Assembly: GCA_946481625.1 (NCBI GenBank)
Contig: CAMLOZ010000016.1
Span: 1 to 15,606 of the forward strand
Origin: an uncultured Haloferula sp.
GTDB taxonomy: Bacteria; Verrucomicrobiota; Verrucomicrobiae; Verrucomicrobiales; Akkermansiaceae
Direction: 5' to 3'
DNA length: 15,606 nucleotides
Under the pieces are notes generated by a model. The model saw only the letters and a program-made list of their open reading frames with translations. It did not search any database and was not told the DNA's origin. A program made the position numbers and the translations under genes. Position 1 is the first letter of the stretch, and each line of letters opens with the position of its first letter. Positions 7,870 to 14,731 of this stretch are shown piece by piece.

Positions 7870-7942
7870 GCGAGGATAGCTCAGTCGGTAGAGCAGTTGG
7901 CTTTTAACCAATTGGTCCTGGGTTCGAGTCCCAGTCCTCGTA
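7870..7942 (+). tRNA. tRNA-Lys (anticodon UUU)
   Basis: A complete 73-nt cloverleaf. The acceptor GCGAGGA pairs with TCCTCGT (7935-7941; the first pair is G-U) and the discriminator is A at 7942. The D arm is GCTC/GAGC, and the anticodon stem GTTGG/CCAAT encloses loop CTTTTAA with anticodon TTT at 7903-7905. The T arm is CTGGG/CCCAG with loop TTCGAGT. The 3' CCA is not encoded (CTT follows). It decodes AAA and AAG lysine codons. It lies 78 bp after the HAD gene on the same strand; no own promoter is obvious. Confidence 0.98.
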
Positions 7943-7993
7943 CTTCTCTGATTCTCACCCGAGGATGCGGCCGGCGGCCCTTGCGAAGCGCCG

Positions 7994-8409: not shown

Positions 8410-10446
8410 ATGTTGCCCGGTGATCGGTCGGAGTTGAAGGAGCCGCGCGTGCGGGAAGAGGCCCTCTTCTCCGCCGCGTTCCGGCATGCGGCTATCCCGA
8501 TGGCCATCGTATCCCTCAAGGGAGGATGGCTCGGGGTCAACCGCGCCTTTTGCGATCTAACAGGTTTGTCCGAGGACGGCATCCTCTCCGGTGTCCCTAC
8601 CCGGGCAGACGACTTGAAGCCTGGCTTGACGGAAATGCGGCAGTTGCTCGAGGGCGGGATCGCGGAGGCCTGCCTCGGTAGGCGCTGTGCGGGTCCCGGG
8701 GGAGAAACGGTAGCTGTCCTGTTGAGGGTCTCGCTCGTTCGCAGCGGGGGCGGGACCCCAGGGTTTTACCTGCTGCAAGTACGGAACTCTGGCGAGCAAC
8801 TCCCGGGGACCGAACCGCTGATCCGGGAGAAGGCTCTCCTGGACAGTCTGATGAACACCAGCCCGGACCACATCTACTTCAAGGACCGCCAAAGCCGGAT
8901 CGTGCGGATCAACCGCAGGATGGCCGAGCACCTCCACTTCGATGACCCGGCCCAGGCGATCGGCCTCACCGATTTCGATTTCTTCGACGAGGACCACGCC
9001 CGCCAGGCCTATGACGATGAGCAGCGCATCATGGCCACCGGCGAGATCGTCCTCAATCAGGAGGAGAAGGAGATCTGGTCGGACGGCCGGGTGAGCTGGG
9101 TCTCCACTACCAAGGTGCCGCACCGCAACGAGCAGGGCGAGATCATCGGCATCATCGGGATCTCCCGCGAAATCACCCGGCAGAAGCTGACCGAGGAGAA
9201 GATGCGCCACGATGAAGAGCGCTACCGGACGCTGATCAAGGCCACCTCAACGATGGTCTGGAGCACCGGCGCCTCGGGCACCTTCGAGGCACCGCAGCCC
9301 GCGTGGACGGCTTTCACGGGACAAAGTTTCGAACAACTCAAGGGCTGGGGCTGGCTCGATGCCGTGCATCCGGAGGACCGGACGCTCACGGTCAAGACCT
9401 GGTCGGACGCCCTCGCAAGCCGTGATACTTATCTCGTGAGGCACCGCTTGCTGCGGCACGACGGGGAATATCGCCACCTCACGGTTCGCGCGGTCCCGCT
9501 GCTGGGCGAGGAAGGCGAGGTCGTCGAATGGGTCGGCTTCCACACCGACATCACCGAGCGGGTCCTCGCGGAAGCCGAAAAGGACCGTCTGAACGCCCAA
9601 CTCGTGGATCTGTCCCACCGGGCCGGGATGAGCGAGGTGGCCACCAGCGTCCTTCACAATGTCGGCAATGTGCTCAACAGCGTGAACATTTCCTGTTCGG
9701 TCATTTCGGAGAAAGTCCGCCGCTCGCGCGCCAGCAGCGTGGCGAAGACCGCCGCGCTCCTGAAGGAGCACGAGGACCATCTGGCGGCCTTCGTCACCAC
9801 CGATCTCCAGGGGCGGCAGCTTCCGGAGTTCCTGGCCAAGCTGGCCGGGCGCCTCGCCGCCGAGCAGGCGGAGGTGTTGGCCGAGATCGACCTCCTCTAC
9901 CGGAATATCGAACACATTTCCCAGATCATTAGCGTCCAGCAGAGCTACGCCAATGTCGGCGGTGTCCACGAGTCGCTGCCGGTCGAAAGGCTGGTCGAAG
10001 ACGCACTGCGGATGAACACGGGCGCGATGAGCCGCCACGAGATCACCTTGATCCGCGAGTTCGCCGAGCTCCCTCCCATGCTGGTGGAGAAACACAAGGT
10101 CCTCCAGATCCTCGTGAACCTGATTCGCAACGCCAAGCATGCGCTGACCGACGGCAATCCCTTGGAGAAGCGCCTCGTGGTCCGCATCGCCATGAAGGAC
10201 CCGGATCACGTCGCCATCAGCGTGAGCGACAACGGCATCGGCATCGCGCCGGAGGACATGAACCGCATCTTCTCCCACGGCTACACGACGAAGCCGGACG
10301 GCCACGGCTTCGGCCTCCACAGCGGCGTGCTGGCCGCACGGGAAATGGGCGGCTCGTTGACCGCGCATAGCGACGGCCGCGGCACCGGCGCGACCTTCAC
10401 CCTCGAACTGCCCTTCCGGACGAACGGCAGTGCCTACCAACCTTGA
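8410..10446 (+). CDS. Soluble PAS-PAS-PAS sensor histidine kinase
   Basis: A 678-residue protein without membrane helices. PAS1 spans about 15-127 (AFRHAAIPMAIV), PAS2 about 140-258 (SPDHIYFKDRQSRIVRINRR), and PAS3 about 268-386 (MVWSTGASG...GFHTDITER). The dimerisation/phosphotransfer region contains VLHNVGNVLNSVN with H416. H403 (SHRAGM) also lies here, but the paralogue at 11063-12985 has arginine at that position, so H416 is the likely phosphorylation site. An unusually long helical linker follows (430-525). The ATPase domain has the N box LIRNAKHA (571-578), G1 DNGIGI (607-612) and KPDGHGFGLH (628-637). It is first in a three-gene operon with a CPC thioredoxin-like protein and a second kinase. 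It is cytoplasmic, so it senses an internal or diffusible signal. No response regulator is nearby. The start lacks a clear Shine-Dalgarno. Confidence 0.93.
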   Translation: MLPGDRSELKEPRVREEALFSAAFRHAAIPMAIVSLKGGWLGVNRAFCDLTGLSEDGILSGVPTRADDLKPGLTEMRQLLEGGIAEACLGRRCAGPGGETVAVLLRVSLVRSGGGTPGFYLLQVRNSGEQLPGTEPLIREKALLDSLMNTSPDHIYFKDRQSRIVRINRRMAEHLHFDDPAQAIGLTDFDFFDEDHARQAYDDEQRIMATGEIVLNQEEKEIWSDGRVSWVSTTKVPHRNEQGEIIGIIGISREITRQKLTEEKMRHDEERYRTLIKATSTMVWSTGASGTFEAPQPAWTAFTGQSFEQLKGWGWLDAVHPEDRTLTVKTWSDALASRDTYLVRHRLLRHDGEYRHLTVRAVPLLGEEGEVVEWVGFHTDITERVLAEAEKDRLNAQLVDLSHRAGMSEVATSVLHNVGNVLNSVNISCSVISEKVRRSRASSVAKTAALLKEHEDHLAAFVTTDLQGRQLPEFLAKLAGRLAAEQAEVLAEIDLLYRNIEHISQIISVQQSYANVGGVHESLPVERLVEDALRMNTGAMSRHEITLIREFAELPPMLVEKHKVLQILVNLIRNAKHALTDGNPLEKRLVVRIAMKDPDHVAISVSDNGIGIAPEDMNRIFSHGYTTKPDGHGFGLHSGVLAAREMGGSLTAHSDGRGTGATFTLELPFRTNGSAYQP

Positions 10447-10451
10447 ATGCG

Positions 10452-11075
10452 ATGAAGCGTGTCCCGATTGGTGCGGTCAAGGTGATGGCCGCGATATGGC
10501 TGGTGGCGGTCCTGGGCGTGATGGTCGCGTTGCTCTGCTACTCGGCCTCGTCAGGTACCGCAGGCGCGGTTCCCCAACGTTGGCCCGCAGCCAGCCGGAT
10601 CTCCTTCGATACCGGCCGTCCCAATCTCGTCCTCTTCGCTCATCCCCGTTGCCCGTGCACACAGGCGACGCTCGGCGAATTGGAGATCCTCATGGCGCGT
10701 TGTCAGGGAAGGATCGCTGTCCAGGTTTGGTTCATCCGGCCTGCGGACACCCCGGAGGATTGGGCCGCCACGGCCTTGTGGCGCAGGGCCTCCTCGATCC
10801 CCGGCGTCACGGTCCGGCGCGATGAGGACATGGCCGAGGCGCGGCGCTTCGGGGCCGAGACCTCGGGCCAGACCCTTCTCTATGACCGCGACGGGAAATT
10901 GCTGTTCCGCGGTGGCATCACGGTTGCCCGCGGTCATTCGGGCGACAATGCCGGACGCAGCGCCTTGGAGGCCCTGCTGGAGCAGCGGTTCCCCCGCGAA
11001 ATCCGGACGCCCGTTTTCGGGTGTCCGCTCTATAACTCCGATTGCCAGCAAGGAGGGATCGCATGCAAACCGTAG
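10452..11075 (+). CDS. Membrane-anchored thioredoxin-fold protein with CPC motif
   Basis: A 207-residue protein from ATG 10452, 5 nt after the kinase-1 stop; a TTG at 10443 overlapping that stop is an alternative. One membrane helix (about 10-29) is followed by a probably periplasmic domain. The motif LFAHPRCPCTQATLGEL (61-77) resembles the TlpA/thioredoxin active site, but with C67-P-C69 instead of CxxC. It is followed by thioredoxin-like TLLYDRDGKLLFRGG (141-155) and GHSGDNAG (161-168). The C-terminus has FGCP plus more cysteines (C191, C198, C205), which could bind a metal or form disulfides. I recall similar proteins annotated RedB-like, unverified. Translation is coupled to kinase 1, and the last 13 bp overlap kinase 2, whose ribosome-binding site lies inside this gene. 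It may supply or relay the redox or metal signal to the kinases. Confidence 0.85.
   Translation: MKRVPIGAVKVMAAIWLVAVLGVMVALLCYSASSGTAGAVPQRWPAASRISFDTGRPNLVLFAHPRCPCTQATLGELEILMARCQGRIAVQVWFIRPADTPEDWAATALWRRASSIPGVTVRRDEDMAEARRFGAETSGQTLLYDRDGKLLFRGGITVARGHSGDNAGRSALEALLEQRFPREIRTPVFGCPLYNSDCQQGGIACKP
11051..11056 (+). promoter_or_regulatory. Shine-Dalgarno AGGAGG deciding the kinase-2 start
   Basis: A perfect AGGAGG lies 6 nt before ATG 11063 and inside the 3' end of the CPC gene. It selects ATG 11063 over TTG 11042. It is the only canonical ribosome-binding site at a major start in this window. Confidence 0.85.
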
Positions 11076-12985
11076 CCGGACTCGATATCGCCGTCGCAGA
11101 CAGGGCGCGGGAACTCTTCCATGAGGCCCGGGAGCGCATCTTTCGCCAGACCGACCGTCTGTTTGCCAATCTGATGATCTTGCAATGGTTCGCGGGAATC
11201 GCCGCGGCCCTGGTGATCTCCCCGCGGACCTGGATCGGGACCGCAAGCCAGACGCACTGGCATGTCTGGGCGGCCGTCTTCCTCGGTGGCGCGATCACGG
11301 GATTCCCCGTTTTCCTCGCTTGGAAACAGCCGGGGCGCGCGCTGACCCGCCACACCGTCGCGGTCGCCCAGATGCTCTTCTCGGCATTGCTGATCCACCT
11401 GACCGGCGGACGCGTCGAAACCCATTTCCACGTTTTCGGCTCGCTCGCGTTCCTGGCGATTTATCGCGACTGGAAGGTCCTCATCTCCGCGACCGTCGTC
11501 GTCGCCATCGACCATTGCGTGCGCGGTTTGTTCTGGCCCCAGTCCGTCTTCGGGGTGGTGACGGCCAGTCCGTGGCGCTGGCTTGAACATGCGGGCTGGG
11601 TGGTGTTCGAGGATGCGTTCCTCCTCATCTCCACCCGGCAGAGCCTGCGTGACATGTTCGAGGTCGCCTCCCGCCGTGCCAACCTGGAGATGCTCAACTC
11701 TCGGATCGAACATCAGGTCGCGGAACGGACCGCCCAGTTGACCGCTGCGCATCAGGACCTCCAGCGGAGCGAGGAACGCTTCTCCAGCGCGTTCGAGCAC
11801 GCTTCGATCGGCATGGCCCTTGTTTCACCCGAGGGACGCTGGATCAAGGTCAACCGGGCGCTTTGCCGGTTGATCGGTTACTCGGCGGAGGAGCTGTATG
11901 AACGGACCTTCCAGGACATCACCCATCCCGAGGATCTGGAAGCGGATGTCGCGCAGGTGCGGCAGGTCTTGGCGGGCGAGATCCTTTCCTACCAGATGGA
12001 GAAGCGCTATCATCACAAGGAAGGTCAAGTGGTCTGGGTCTTGTTGAGCGTCTCGCTGATCCGGGATGCCCGGGGACTGCCAGTTCATTTCATCTCGCAG
12101 ATCCAGGACATCACCGAGCGCAAGGAGGCCGAGGCCGCGCTGGGTGTCATGCACCGGGAGCTGCTGGAAGCCTCCCGCCGCGCCGGCATGGCGGAAGTCG
12201 CGACGAACGTGCTCCACAACGTGGGCAACGTCCTCAACAGCGTGAACATCGCCTGTGCGGTGGCGGCCGAAAAGATCCGCACCTCGCGCGTCGGCAGCGT
12301 GAAGAAAACGGCCGACCTGCTCGAGGAACATGCCGGTGATCTGGCCGAGTTCGTCGCCGGCGATCCGAGGGGCCGGAAGCTTCCCGAGTTCCTCCGCAAT
12401 CTCGCCGGGAAGCTCGTCGAGGAGCAATCGGAGGTGCTGGAGGAGCTGCAGGGGCTCGGCAAGAACATCGATCACATCAAGGAGATCGTGGCAATGCAAC
12501 AGGGCTATGCGAGGGTTTCCGGCGTTACGGAGACGGTCGAGGTCGCCGATCTGGTCGAGGACAGCCTGCGCATGAACGCCGGTTCCTTGTCGCGTCATGA
12601 CGTGCAGGTGATCCGCGACTACGCGAACGTGCCCCCGATCACGGTGGAGAAGCACAAGGCATTGCAGATCCTGGTGAACCTCATCCGCAACGCGAAGCAC
12701 GCGTGCGATGATTCCGGCTCTCCGGACAAGAAGATGACCGTGCGGGTGGCCAACGGCTCGGGAAGCGTCCGCGTCTCGGTGATCGACAACGGCGTGGGCA
12801 TCTCGCCGGAGAACCTGACCCGCATCTTCGCCCACGGCTTCACGACCAAGCCGGACGGCCACGGCTTCGGCCTCCATAGCGGCGCCTTGGCCGCGAAGGA
12901 AATGGGTGGCTCTCTCACCGTTCATAGCGATGGAGAGGGCTCGGGCGCGACCTTCACTCTCGAACTTCCGGCCGAGAGGCGTTAG
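11063..12985 (+). CDS. Membrane-bound sensor histidine kinase with His-rich 6-TM domain and PAS
   Basis: A 640-residue protein. Residues 30-192 form about six membrane helices with conserved-looking HFH (121-123), YRDW (134-137) and D150-H151. This pattern resembles membrane sensor regions I recall in some chemoreceptors and kinases. The histidines could bind metal or a cofactor (inference). A coiled coil (about 205-237) leads to one PAS (238-353), similar to PAS1 of kinase 1. The transmitter has VLHNVGNVLNSVN with H385, the N box LIRNAKHA (540-547), G1 DNGVGI (575-580) and KPDGHGFGLH (597-606). It is closely paralogous to the kinase-1 transmitter, including near-identical DNA at 10292-10324 and 12851-12883. 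The gene overlaps the CPC gene by 13 bp. No response regulator or terminator follows directly. Confidence 0.93.
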   Translation: MQTVAGLDIAVADRARELFHEARERIFRQTDRLFANLMILQWFAGIAAALVISPRTWIGTASQTHWHVWAAVFLGGAITGFPVFLAWKQPGRALTRHTVAVAQMLFSALLIHLTGGRVETHFHVFGSLAFLAIYRDWKVLISATVVVAIDHCVRGLFWPQSVFGVVTASPWRWLEHAGWVVFEDAFLLISTRQSLRDMFEVASRRANLEMLNSRIEHQVAERTAQLTAAHQDLQRSEERFSSAFEHASIGMALVSPEGRWIKVNRALCRLIGYSAEELYERTFQDITHPEDLEADVAQVRQVLAGEILSYQMEKRYHHKEGQVVWVLLSVSLIRDARGLPVHFISQIQDITERKEAEAALGVMHRELLEASRRAGMAEVATNVLHNVGNVLNSVNIACAVAAEKIRTSRVGSVKKTADLLEEHAGDLAEFVAGDPRGRKLPEFLRNLAGKLVEEQSEVLEELQGLGKNIDHIKEIVAMQQGYARVSGVTETVEVADLVEDSLRMNAGSLSRHDVQVIRDYANVPPITVEKHKALQILVNLIRNAKHACDDSGSPDKKMTVRVANGSGSVRVSVIDNGVGISPENLTRIFAHGFTTKPDGHGFGLHSGALAAKEMGGSLTVHSDGEGSGATFTLELPAERR

Positions 12986-14020: not shown

Positions 14021-14323
14021 ATGTCCAAACTCGAATACGCGGTGGTGTCGGACCTGAGGCGCGCGATAGAAGTGAAGAAGGTGATCCAATTCTCCTGTCT
14101 GGGCGAGCAGTACGAGGTGGAACCCCATTTGCTGGGAAACGCGATCCGCACCCGGGCCATGATCCTGATCGCGTGGGTCCGCGCACCGGAGGCCGGATGG
14201 CGGACCTTCCGTTTCTCCCTCATCCGCGCCCTCGAATTTTCGAAGGAGACCTTCCACTCCGCGAGGCCCGGCTTCAATCCCCACGATCCCCGAGTGGAGA
14301 GCATCGACACCCTTGTGAAGTAA
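14021..14323 (+). CDS. Single-domain WYL-like protein (copy 1)
   Basis: A 100-residue protein. SDLRRAIEVKKVIQFSC, EQYEVEPHLLG, LIAWV and WRTFRFSLIRALEF follow the order of a WYL core (helix, strand F-x-Y/C-x-G, V-E-P-H, strand, closing strand), as in short WYL proteins lacking a DNA-binding domain. WYL domains bind ligands or nucleic acid ends and often act as regulatory sensors. The usual W-Y-L triad is not conserved, so the call is by overall pattern. It is clearly paralogous to the convergent gene at 14462-14731. It carries no HTH, so it may act through a partner. Confidence 0.75.
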   Translation: MSKLEYAVVSDLRRAIEVKKVIQFSCLGEQYEVEPHLLGNAIRTRAMILIAWVRAPEAGWRTFRFSLIRALEFSKETFHSARPGFNPHDPRVESIDTLVK

Positions 14324-14461: not shown

Positions 14462-14731
14462 CTACCACCTCGGCCGCGCGCGGGGCAGGAAGCCTTCCCG
14501 CAGCACCTCCATCTCGCGCATCTGGTAGAAACGCACCGTCTTCCATCCCGGCCCGCCGGGCCCGTCCAGAATCCACAGCACCACCTCGAAGGAGCAGGTT
14601 CGCCGGCTGTTCTCGATCGCGTGCGGTTCCGCCAGGTAGTGCAGGCCGGAGCATACGAAGCGGATCTGTTTGCGGGTTGCGATCGCCTCTCGCAGATCGC
14701 TCATTTCGGCGTACTTCAAAGCGGTGGCCAT
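14462..14731 (-). CDS. Single-domain WYL-like protein (copy 2)
   Basis: An 89-residue paralogue of the protein at 14021-14323. Shared blocks are YA-x-x-SDLR-x-AI, F-x-C-x-G-x-x-Y, EPH, N-x-x-RT, GW-(R/K)-T-x-RF and E-x-F-x-x-ARP, in the same order. The copy-1 C-terminal tail is missing. Function as for the WYL-like core: a ligand- or nucleic-acid-binding sensor domain, with no HTH. The two genes converge with a 138-bp gap that shows no terminator. Upstream, TTGACA (14764-14759) is present, but the following -10 (TAACTT, 15-bp spacer) is poor. Confidence 0.75.
   Translation of the reverse strand: MATALKYAEMSDLREAIATRKQIRFVCSGLHYLAEPHAIENSRRTCSFEVVLWILDGPGGPGWKTVRFYQMREMEVLREGFLPRARPRW

What the first reader, a model, noticed from the sequence alone, without database searches (positions are those of the whole stretch)
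8410..12985. Kinase - CPC thioredoxin-like - kinase module: candidate redox/metal signalling system
Two paralogous PAS histidine kinases of the VLHNVGNVLNSVN type flank a membrane-anchored thioredoxin-fold protein with a CPC centre and extra C-terminal cysteines. The genes are coupled (5-nt gap, then 13-bp overlap). One kinase is soluble with three PAS domains; the other has a His-rich membrane sensor. There is no response regulator. The layout suggests that the CPC protein presents a redox or metal state to the kinases. The link between the three is inference.
Basis: partly seen in the sequence, partly recalled or inferred. Interest (0 to 1): 0.75.

Follow-up and report, generated by a model that had tools for sequence, protein, structure and literature searches.

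The report
Membrane sensor with dedicated thioredoxin-like partner
A small cell-surface protein built like thioredoxin is usually encoded directly ahead of a particular membrane sensor, in many bacterial phyla and whatever signalling machinery that sensor drives, so the two probably form one receptor that reports a redox or metal condition outside the cell.

Summary
The three genes are real and placed as described. The real unit is a pair inside them. P0002 (10452-11075) belongs to the "RedB" family, on which no study turned up in this library. Its constant partner is not the VLHNVGN kinase core but the His-rich six-helix membrane domain of P0003 (residues 1-235). That domain lies directly downstream of RedB, same strand, in 76 of 80 loci from about 12 phyla. 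In three phylum samples (440 genomes) both occur in 52, sensor alone in 4, RedB alone in 2 (both at contig ends). Its outputs vary: histidine kinase, hybrid kinase, GGDEF, chemotaxis and Ser/Thr kinase domains. RedB keeps H64-P-x-C67-P-C69, H162 and C191 almost without exception, but has His at the usual nucleophilic Cys and Gly at the proline before strand four. That points to a metal or special thiol site rather than an ordinary oxidoreductase. In a Myxococcus the pair heads an operon laid out like redCDEF. Best reading: a two-protein receptor with RedB as periplasmic subunit, comparable to RegB with SenC. Contact, ligand and metal are inferred. The soluble three-PAS kinase looks like a clade-specific addition.

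The parts
8410..10446 (+). P0001, soluble histidine kinase with three PAS stretches and an HNVGN-type core (H at residue 416, codon 9655-9657; HATPase_c about 10096-10419); probably a clade-specific companion
   Evidence: own clade in a kinase-core tree, not sister of P0003
10452..11075 (+). P0002, RedB-family membrane-anchored thioredoxin-fold protein
   Evidence: (sources name two homologues 'RedB protein')
10467..10547 (+). RedB N-terminal membrane helix (residues 6-32), positive N-terminus inside, rest predicted periplasmic
10641..10658 (+). RedB H64-P-R-C67-P-C69 motif
   Evidence: H64 129/130, C67 130/130, C69 130/130 distinct homologues
10935..10937 (+). RedB H162 (RGHxGDN)
   Evidence: 129/130
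11019..11024 (+). RedB G190-C191 (FGC), aligned with the C-terminal GC of 2cvb
   Evidence: 129/130, one gap; alignment
11063..12985 (+). P0003, sensor histidine kinase: six-helix membrane domain, PAS (about 11774-12112), HNVGN core (H codon 12215-12217), HATPase_c (about 12659-12976)
11063..11767 (+). RedB-linked six-helix membrane sensor domain (residues 1-235); only weak Pfam matches in relatives (best E 0.0033), no sequence match in the PDB
   Evidence: same strand directly downstream of RedB in 76 of 80 loci
11396..11440 (+). signature HLTGGRVETHFHVFG (residues 112-126); G116, R117, E119, H121, F122, F125 invariant in RedB-paired sensors
   Evidence: 119/119
11063..11075 (+). 13-nt overlap of RedB and sensor genes

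Best explanation
RedB (P0002) and the six-helix membrane domain of P0003 form one two-protein receptor. RedB, tethered in the inner membrane with its thioredoxin fold in the periplasm, carries a site made of H64, C67, C69, probably with H162 and C191. This site takes up a transition metal (Cu(I) first guess) or switches thiol state. RedB docks on the periplasmic loops of the six-helix domain (H65/H67, H112-H123, R172-H176), and its state changes the dimer arrangement. The change passes down the long last helix and PAS domain to whatever output is fused, here the HNVGN kinase. Shown: gene pairing, overlap, co-occurrence, varied outputs, near-invariant residues. Predicted: the two folds. Inferred: contact, ligand, metal or redox nature, direction of the signal. 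The soluble kinase P0001 probably joins the same output, since its core resembles that of P0003, but only in this clade.
For: Sensor directly downstream of RedB, same strand, in 76 of 80 loci. RedB directly upstream of a sensor in 7 of 8 Verrucomicrobiota, 17 of 19 Planctomycetota (other two at contig ends) and 28 of 35 Myxococcota cases. Co-occurrence in 440 genomes: both 52, sensor only 4, RedB only 2, neither 382; Fisher p 2e-14, 2e-18 and 2e-21 per phylum, relatedness not corrected. Outputs vary while the pair stays: HATPase 40, HisKA 35, receiver 23, Hpt 5, GGDEF 1, MCP 1, Pkinase 1 of 44 proteins. The next gene downstream has a receiver domain in 25 of 46 loci scanned. RedB C67, C69 130/130; H64, H162, C191 129/130. 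Some loop residues are less conserved in sensors without adjacent RedB: R172 28/38 against 119/119, H67 26/38 against 115/119, H65 22/38 against 112/119, while Y134 stays 38/38. RedB and sensor distances correlate (r 0.51 over 147 pairs, 0 of 499 permutations as high), but see against.
Against: Many sensors have no adjacent RedB: 38 of 66 in the Myxococcota sample. Most of their histidines remain (H121 33/38, H176 32/38), so the domain can work without an adjacent RedB. In 7 of 35 Myxococcota cases and in G181, RedB stands apart from a sensor. G406 keeps only about 23 residues of RedB before a sensor, and in G447 the sensor operon has a receiver gene but no RedB before it. Distance correlation does not single out the pair: in 68 loci r is 0.39 for RedB-sensor and 0.37 for RedB-HATPase (an earlier cruder version gave 0.31 against 0.39). 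No metal, redox or contact evidence was obtained. The neighbour families shown include one AcrB-type transporter (1 of 37 upstream genes) but no other evident metal-transport or respiratory gene (first 25 families of each only).
Confidence: 0.6

Rival explanations
1. RedB matures the sensor but does not sense: it delivers a metal or cofactor to the sensor's own histidine cluster, or repairs it, as SenC/Sco proteins load copper into oxidases. The sensor then reads its own site.
For: The sensor's H121, H176, E119 and E175 are 119/119 in paired sensors and mostly kept in sensors without adjacent RedB (33, 32, 33 and 36 of 38); several myxobacterial genomes have one or two RedB genes but three sensors, which fits action in trans; thioredoxin fold with a His/Cys site.
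Against: Three sampled Myxococcota genomes (G406, G412, G447) have sensors and no RedB hit of at least 130 bits, although only part of the first-look candidates were scored; a maturation factor would not need to be next to its client so regularly.
Confidence: 0.25
2. RedB is a structural or inhibitory subunit whose cysteines form fixed disulfides or a structural metal site; the sensed ligand is something else (lipid, quinone or small molecule) bound by the six-helix domain.
Confidence: 0.12
3. The three genes are neighbours by chance and P0002 is an unrelated thiol protein.
For: None found beyond the sensor copies and RedB copies that stand alone.
Against: 76 of 80 loci in about 12 phyla and three phylum samples.
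Confidence: 0.01

Closest known systems
Myxococcus xanthus Red system (redCDEF, with upstream redB)
   Same: RedB-family protein directly upstream of a histidine kinase with the same six-helix domain; L066 (Myxococcus dinghuensis) reads receiver, RedB, kinase, double receiver, kinase-like ATPase, receiver, matching the T1-R1R2-T2-R3 layout of redCDEF told in PMC3018481 (passages)
   Different: No receiver gene was found in the window; its sensor kinase has a PAS domain and an HNVGN core, and a soluble kinase lies upstream. That redB lies upstream of redC in M. xanthus itself is recalled; the primary papers were not held.
RegB/PrrB with SenC/PrrC (Rhodobacter)
   Same: Six-helix redox histidine kinase whose gene or regulator gene is cotranscribed with a periplasmic copper-binding protein (PMC9147068 passages); that SenC has a thioredoxin fold is recalled, though Sco structures are in RedB's fold list
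   Different: No Sco family match for RedB; RedB has CPC with a preceding His, not the Sco CxxxC (motif recalled); the window's sensor lacks the NPF string of the RegB quinone motif (recalled; read)
Six-helix membrane anchors of class III adenylyl cyclases and the CqsS quorum receptor
   Same: Six-helix domain feeding a helical linker to an exchangeable output; best second-look fold matches AC9, ImcA, AC8; PMC4821796 (abstract) and PMC9433096 (passages) argue that such anchors are receptors
Thioredoxin-like proteins of the 2cvb/2ywi/3u5r type
   Different: In the 2cvb alignment the first CxxC cysteine is H64 in RedB, C69 is new, and the proline before strand four is Gly139

Membership tests
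RedB family (name used by sequence sources) | Sequence homology to proteins named RedB | tested here: met
   P0040 (56%, UniRef 'RedB protein') and P0043 (61%, NCBI 'RedB protein')
RedB family (name used by sequence sources) | H-P-x-C-P-C, RGH and C-terminal Gly-Cys | tested here: met
   Residues 64-69, 160-162, 190-191
Myxococcus Red system | RedB followed by six-helix sensor kinase | tested here: met
   Window and L066, L045
Myxococcus Red system | T1-R1R2-T2-R3 operon with receivers | tested here: not met
   Pfam found no receiver in the 20 other window ORFs scanned or in P0001-P0003; the window is only 15.6 kb, so receivers elsewhere are not excluded
Sco/SenC copper chaperones | Match to a Sco/SenC family model | tested here: not met
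   No Pfam family for P0002 up to E 1; no Sco family among the six weak families of 32 members. Two Sco structures do appear in the fold list (4hde E 7.5e-5, 4bpy E 1.2e-4, TM 0.42-0.43)
Sco/SenC copper chaperones | CxxxC plus distal His binding copper (recalled) | not testable with these tools
   Spacing differs (CPC); copper binding needs protein
Canonical thioredoxin/TlpA oxidoreductases | Nucleophilic Cys of CxxC and cis-Pro | tested here: not met
   His64 and Gly139 align with those positions of 2cvb; 129/130 each. That the proline is the cis-Pro is inferred from the fold
Canonical thioredoxin/TlpA oxidoreductases | Thioredoxin fold | tested here: met
RegB/PrrB kinases | Six membrane helices before the kinase | tested here: met
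   Six long helices in the predicted model of residues 1-235; a plain hydropathy scan showed five peaks above its cut-off
RegB/PrrB kinases | Quinone-binding motif and redox Cys in the linker (motif recalled) | tested here: inconclusive
   No NPF string in P0003 by reading; no profile search was made
Adenylyl cyclase type six-helix anchors | Shared fold | tested here: inconclusive

The most novel reading that the evidence does not exclude
RedB is the natural, genetically linked protein partner of a six-helix receptor domain of the adenylyl-cyclase-anchor kind. Together they are a portable two-protein receptor for periplasmic copper or thiol redox state, spread over about a dozen phyla and fitted to many kinds of bacterial output: histidine kinases, diguanylate cyclases, chemotaxis receptors and Ser/Thr kinases.
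Probability: 0.25. Interest if true: 0.8.

Novelty: new variant of a known kind. Interest (0 to 1): 0.6.

Why it matters
One unnamed membrane input domain with a linked periplasmic partner appears to feed many signalling systems, yet neither half matched a Pfam family beyond weak E values. If true it would give a testable input for the myxobacterial Red developmental pathway. It would also offer a bacterial model for the open question of what six-helix receptor domains bind, and a parallel, differently built case of the RegB-SenC pairing of a redox kinase with a copper protein.

Tried and rejected
Local duplication of the flanking kinases: a 12-sequence comparison suggested that P0001 and P0003 were closest to each other from P0001's side (62%). 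With 130 kinase cores P0001 sits in its own clade, far from P0003 (distance 1.53), so I dropped this for the window. It holds for L007 (upstream kinase 89% to the sensor kinase, support 1.0) and L013 (downstream kinase 72%, support 0.93).

Co-evolution test: distance correlations did not separate the RedB-sensor link from RedB-HATPase.

Literature: searches for RedB, RedC-F and the pair listed no paper on RedB as a thioredoxin-like partner. Higgs 2005 and the paper recalled as the Red phosphorelay work were not held. Absence is therefore only from this open-access library, judged by listings.

Viral contigs: no relative of P0002. The window's own genome is not held.

Thresholds and dropped rows: one search used matches of at least 130 bits, chosen after seeing the tables. 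Dropped were weaker sensor-like rows (six Verrucomicrobiota including G114 at 122.8 bits, one Planctomycetota, one Myxococcota) and weaker RedB-like rows (7, 9 and 10; E 9e-9 to 7.4e-6). The samples contain the centre genomes G001, G003, G004 and also G010, which were known to have the pair. The search scored only part of the first-look candidates in larger genomes (for example 34 of 106 in G406). Gene starts were taken as the first start codon from 60 nt before the RedB stop, which favours overlaps (69 of 76). L043, L049 and L051 count among the 76 although their sensor frames are broken. Of the four loci without the standard arrangement, L028 and L057 end 245 and 344 nt after RedB with no visible sensor start, L073 has a kinase/receiver-like fragment but no sensor, and L031 has the sensor on the other strand. 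In one search the 20 loci L191-L210 fell out by an upstream-length filter; one search puts them back (38 distinct unpaired sensors after identical ones were merged). Neighbour scans used 46 of 62 downstream and 37 of 60 upstream ORFs listed, chosen by eye; ORF picking was crude and missed the receiver gene upstream of RedB in L066 and left out the L007 and L013 kinases. The sensor family scan used 44 proteins: P0003 and 43 of the 76 others. In one search other-type kinase ATPase hits upstream of RedB occur in L009, L054 and L059.
Full report
What is there. Three genes follow each other on the + strand: P0001 8410-10446, P0002 10452-11075 and P0003 11063-12985. P0001 has three PAS stretches and HATPase_c; P0003 has a membrane domain, one PAS and HATPase_c; neither matches HisKA. 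The kinases share 50% identity over 407 residues, including the HNVGNVLNS box. No receiver domain was found in the 20 other window ORFs scanned, of 60 others listed. Upstream lie rbfA, infB and nusA homologues, a HAD hydrolase and tRNA-Lys, which say nothing on function.

The constant partner. Of 80 loci found in one scan of one-per-species genomes (189 relatives in all; the best 80 kept), 76 have the membrane domain of P0003 (residues 1-235) directly downstream on the same strand (three of these frames are broken). By record titles, assigned by me, they span Verrucomicrobiota, Planctomycetota, Acidobacteriota, Myxococcota, Binatota, Armatimonadota, Latescibacterota, Cyanobacteria/Melainabacteria, Omnitrophota, Eisenbacteria, Elusimicrobia and Rhodothermales. 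Only 14 of the 76 sensor proteins show the HNxxNxLN box.

Reciprocal test. In genomes drawn evenly by the tool (194 Verrucomicrobiota, 149 Planctomycetota, 97 Myxococcota) and at 130 bits or more, both occur in 8, 16 and 28 genomes, sensor only in 0, 1 and 3, RedB only in 0, 2 and 0, neither in 186, 130 and 66. The two RedB-only genomes have RedB at a contig end (G342: contig ends 25 nt after the match; G273: match ends at base 121 of its contig). RedB is directly upstream of a sensor in 7 of 8, 17 of 19 and 28 of 35 cases. Myxococcota carry many extra sensors without RedB beside them (38 of 66). G406 keeps only about 23 RedB residues before the sensor, while the following genes look like those of the L066 operon (by resemblance; not scanned). 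In G447 a similar operon has a receiver gene but no RedB before the sensor. Seven Myxococcota cases and G181 have RedB apart from a sensor.

Outputs and neighbours. Among 44 RedB-linked sensor proteins, 40 have HATPase_c, 35 HisKA, 23 a receiver, 5 Hpt, 1 GGDEF, 1 an MCP domain (L047) and 1 a Ser/Thr kinase (L080). The next gene downstream has a receiver in 25 of 46 loci scanned and a kinase ATPase in 13; upstream a receiver in 8 of 37, a low count since my ORF picking missed at least one (L066). The pair therefore often heads signalling operons. In L066 the order is receiver, RedB, sensor kinase, double receiver, kinase-like ATPase, receiver, the T1-R1R2-T2-R3 layout that PMC3018481 (passages) gives for M. 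xanthus redCDEF.

The soluble kinase. P0001 belongs to a clade of 11 kinases in a tree of 130 cores and is not the sister of P0003. RedB homologues and P0001-clade members share longest-contig lengths of 131108, 4336 and 10346, and the first is also the length listed for a 639-aa kinase with the sensor domain (P0215). So the triad probably exists in close relatives; this is circumstantial. Elsewhere a HNVGN-type kinase upstream of RedB was seen only in L007 of 76 loci. L013 has a propeller-type kinase with a related core downstream.

Mechanism and standing. The best-supported account is a two-protein receptor with RedB as periplasmic subunit; a maturation role is the main rival. [quoted passage not shown] Against my reading stand the RedB-less sensors, the RedB genes that stand apart, the undecided correlation test and the lack of any direct metal, redox or contact evidence.

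Noticed in passing
window 14021-14323 (+) and 14462-14731 (-): Two small inverted ORFs whose products are 41% identical over 85 residues; no Pfam match. An unnamed paralogous pair.
   Followed up: partly
window 7870-7943: tRNA-Lys (ttt) gene between the HAD hydrolase and the kinase operon; mechanical ORFs run across it.
   Followed up: no
window 9649-9687 and 12209-12247; The HNVGNVLNS-type kinase core (Asn after the His instead of the usual acidic residue; that expectation is recalled) gets no HisKA match, yet all 8,000 candidates scored matched the core query, a capped number; I did not check all for the box. They carry many sensor types.
   Followed up: partly
L185 6068-6822 (genome G406): A red-type locus in which only about 23 N-terminal residues of RedB remain before the sensor kinase frame; the following genes resemble those of L066. 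A natural loss of RedB.
   Followed up: partly
L186 (genome G447): A red-type locus with a receiver gene, sensor kinase and following genes resembling L066 but no RedB.
   Followed up: partly
L060: Record titled 'Comamonas sp. KCTC 72670' lies in genome G010, which was drawn in the sample of the phylum of Myxococcus genome G004; the title looks mislabelled.
   Followed up: no
L007 5305-10573: Kinases on both sides of RedB share 89% of their kinase core against about 50-61% to others, a recent duplication or conversion.
   Followed up: partly
L013 9660-12857: Reg_prop/Y_Y_Y kinase with a HNVGN core next to the RedB-sensor pair.
   Followed up: no
L108, L109, L110, L111, L113, L114, L140: Distant relatives of the six-helix domain (49-123 bits, six of seven over part of the model only); four of the seven lie in genomes without a RedB hit of 130 bits. 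Possibly a wider unnamed superfamily.
   Followed up: no
L050 8564-9682: RedB-linked sensor ORF of 372 aa with no recognised output domain.
   Followed up: no
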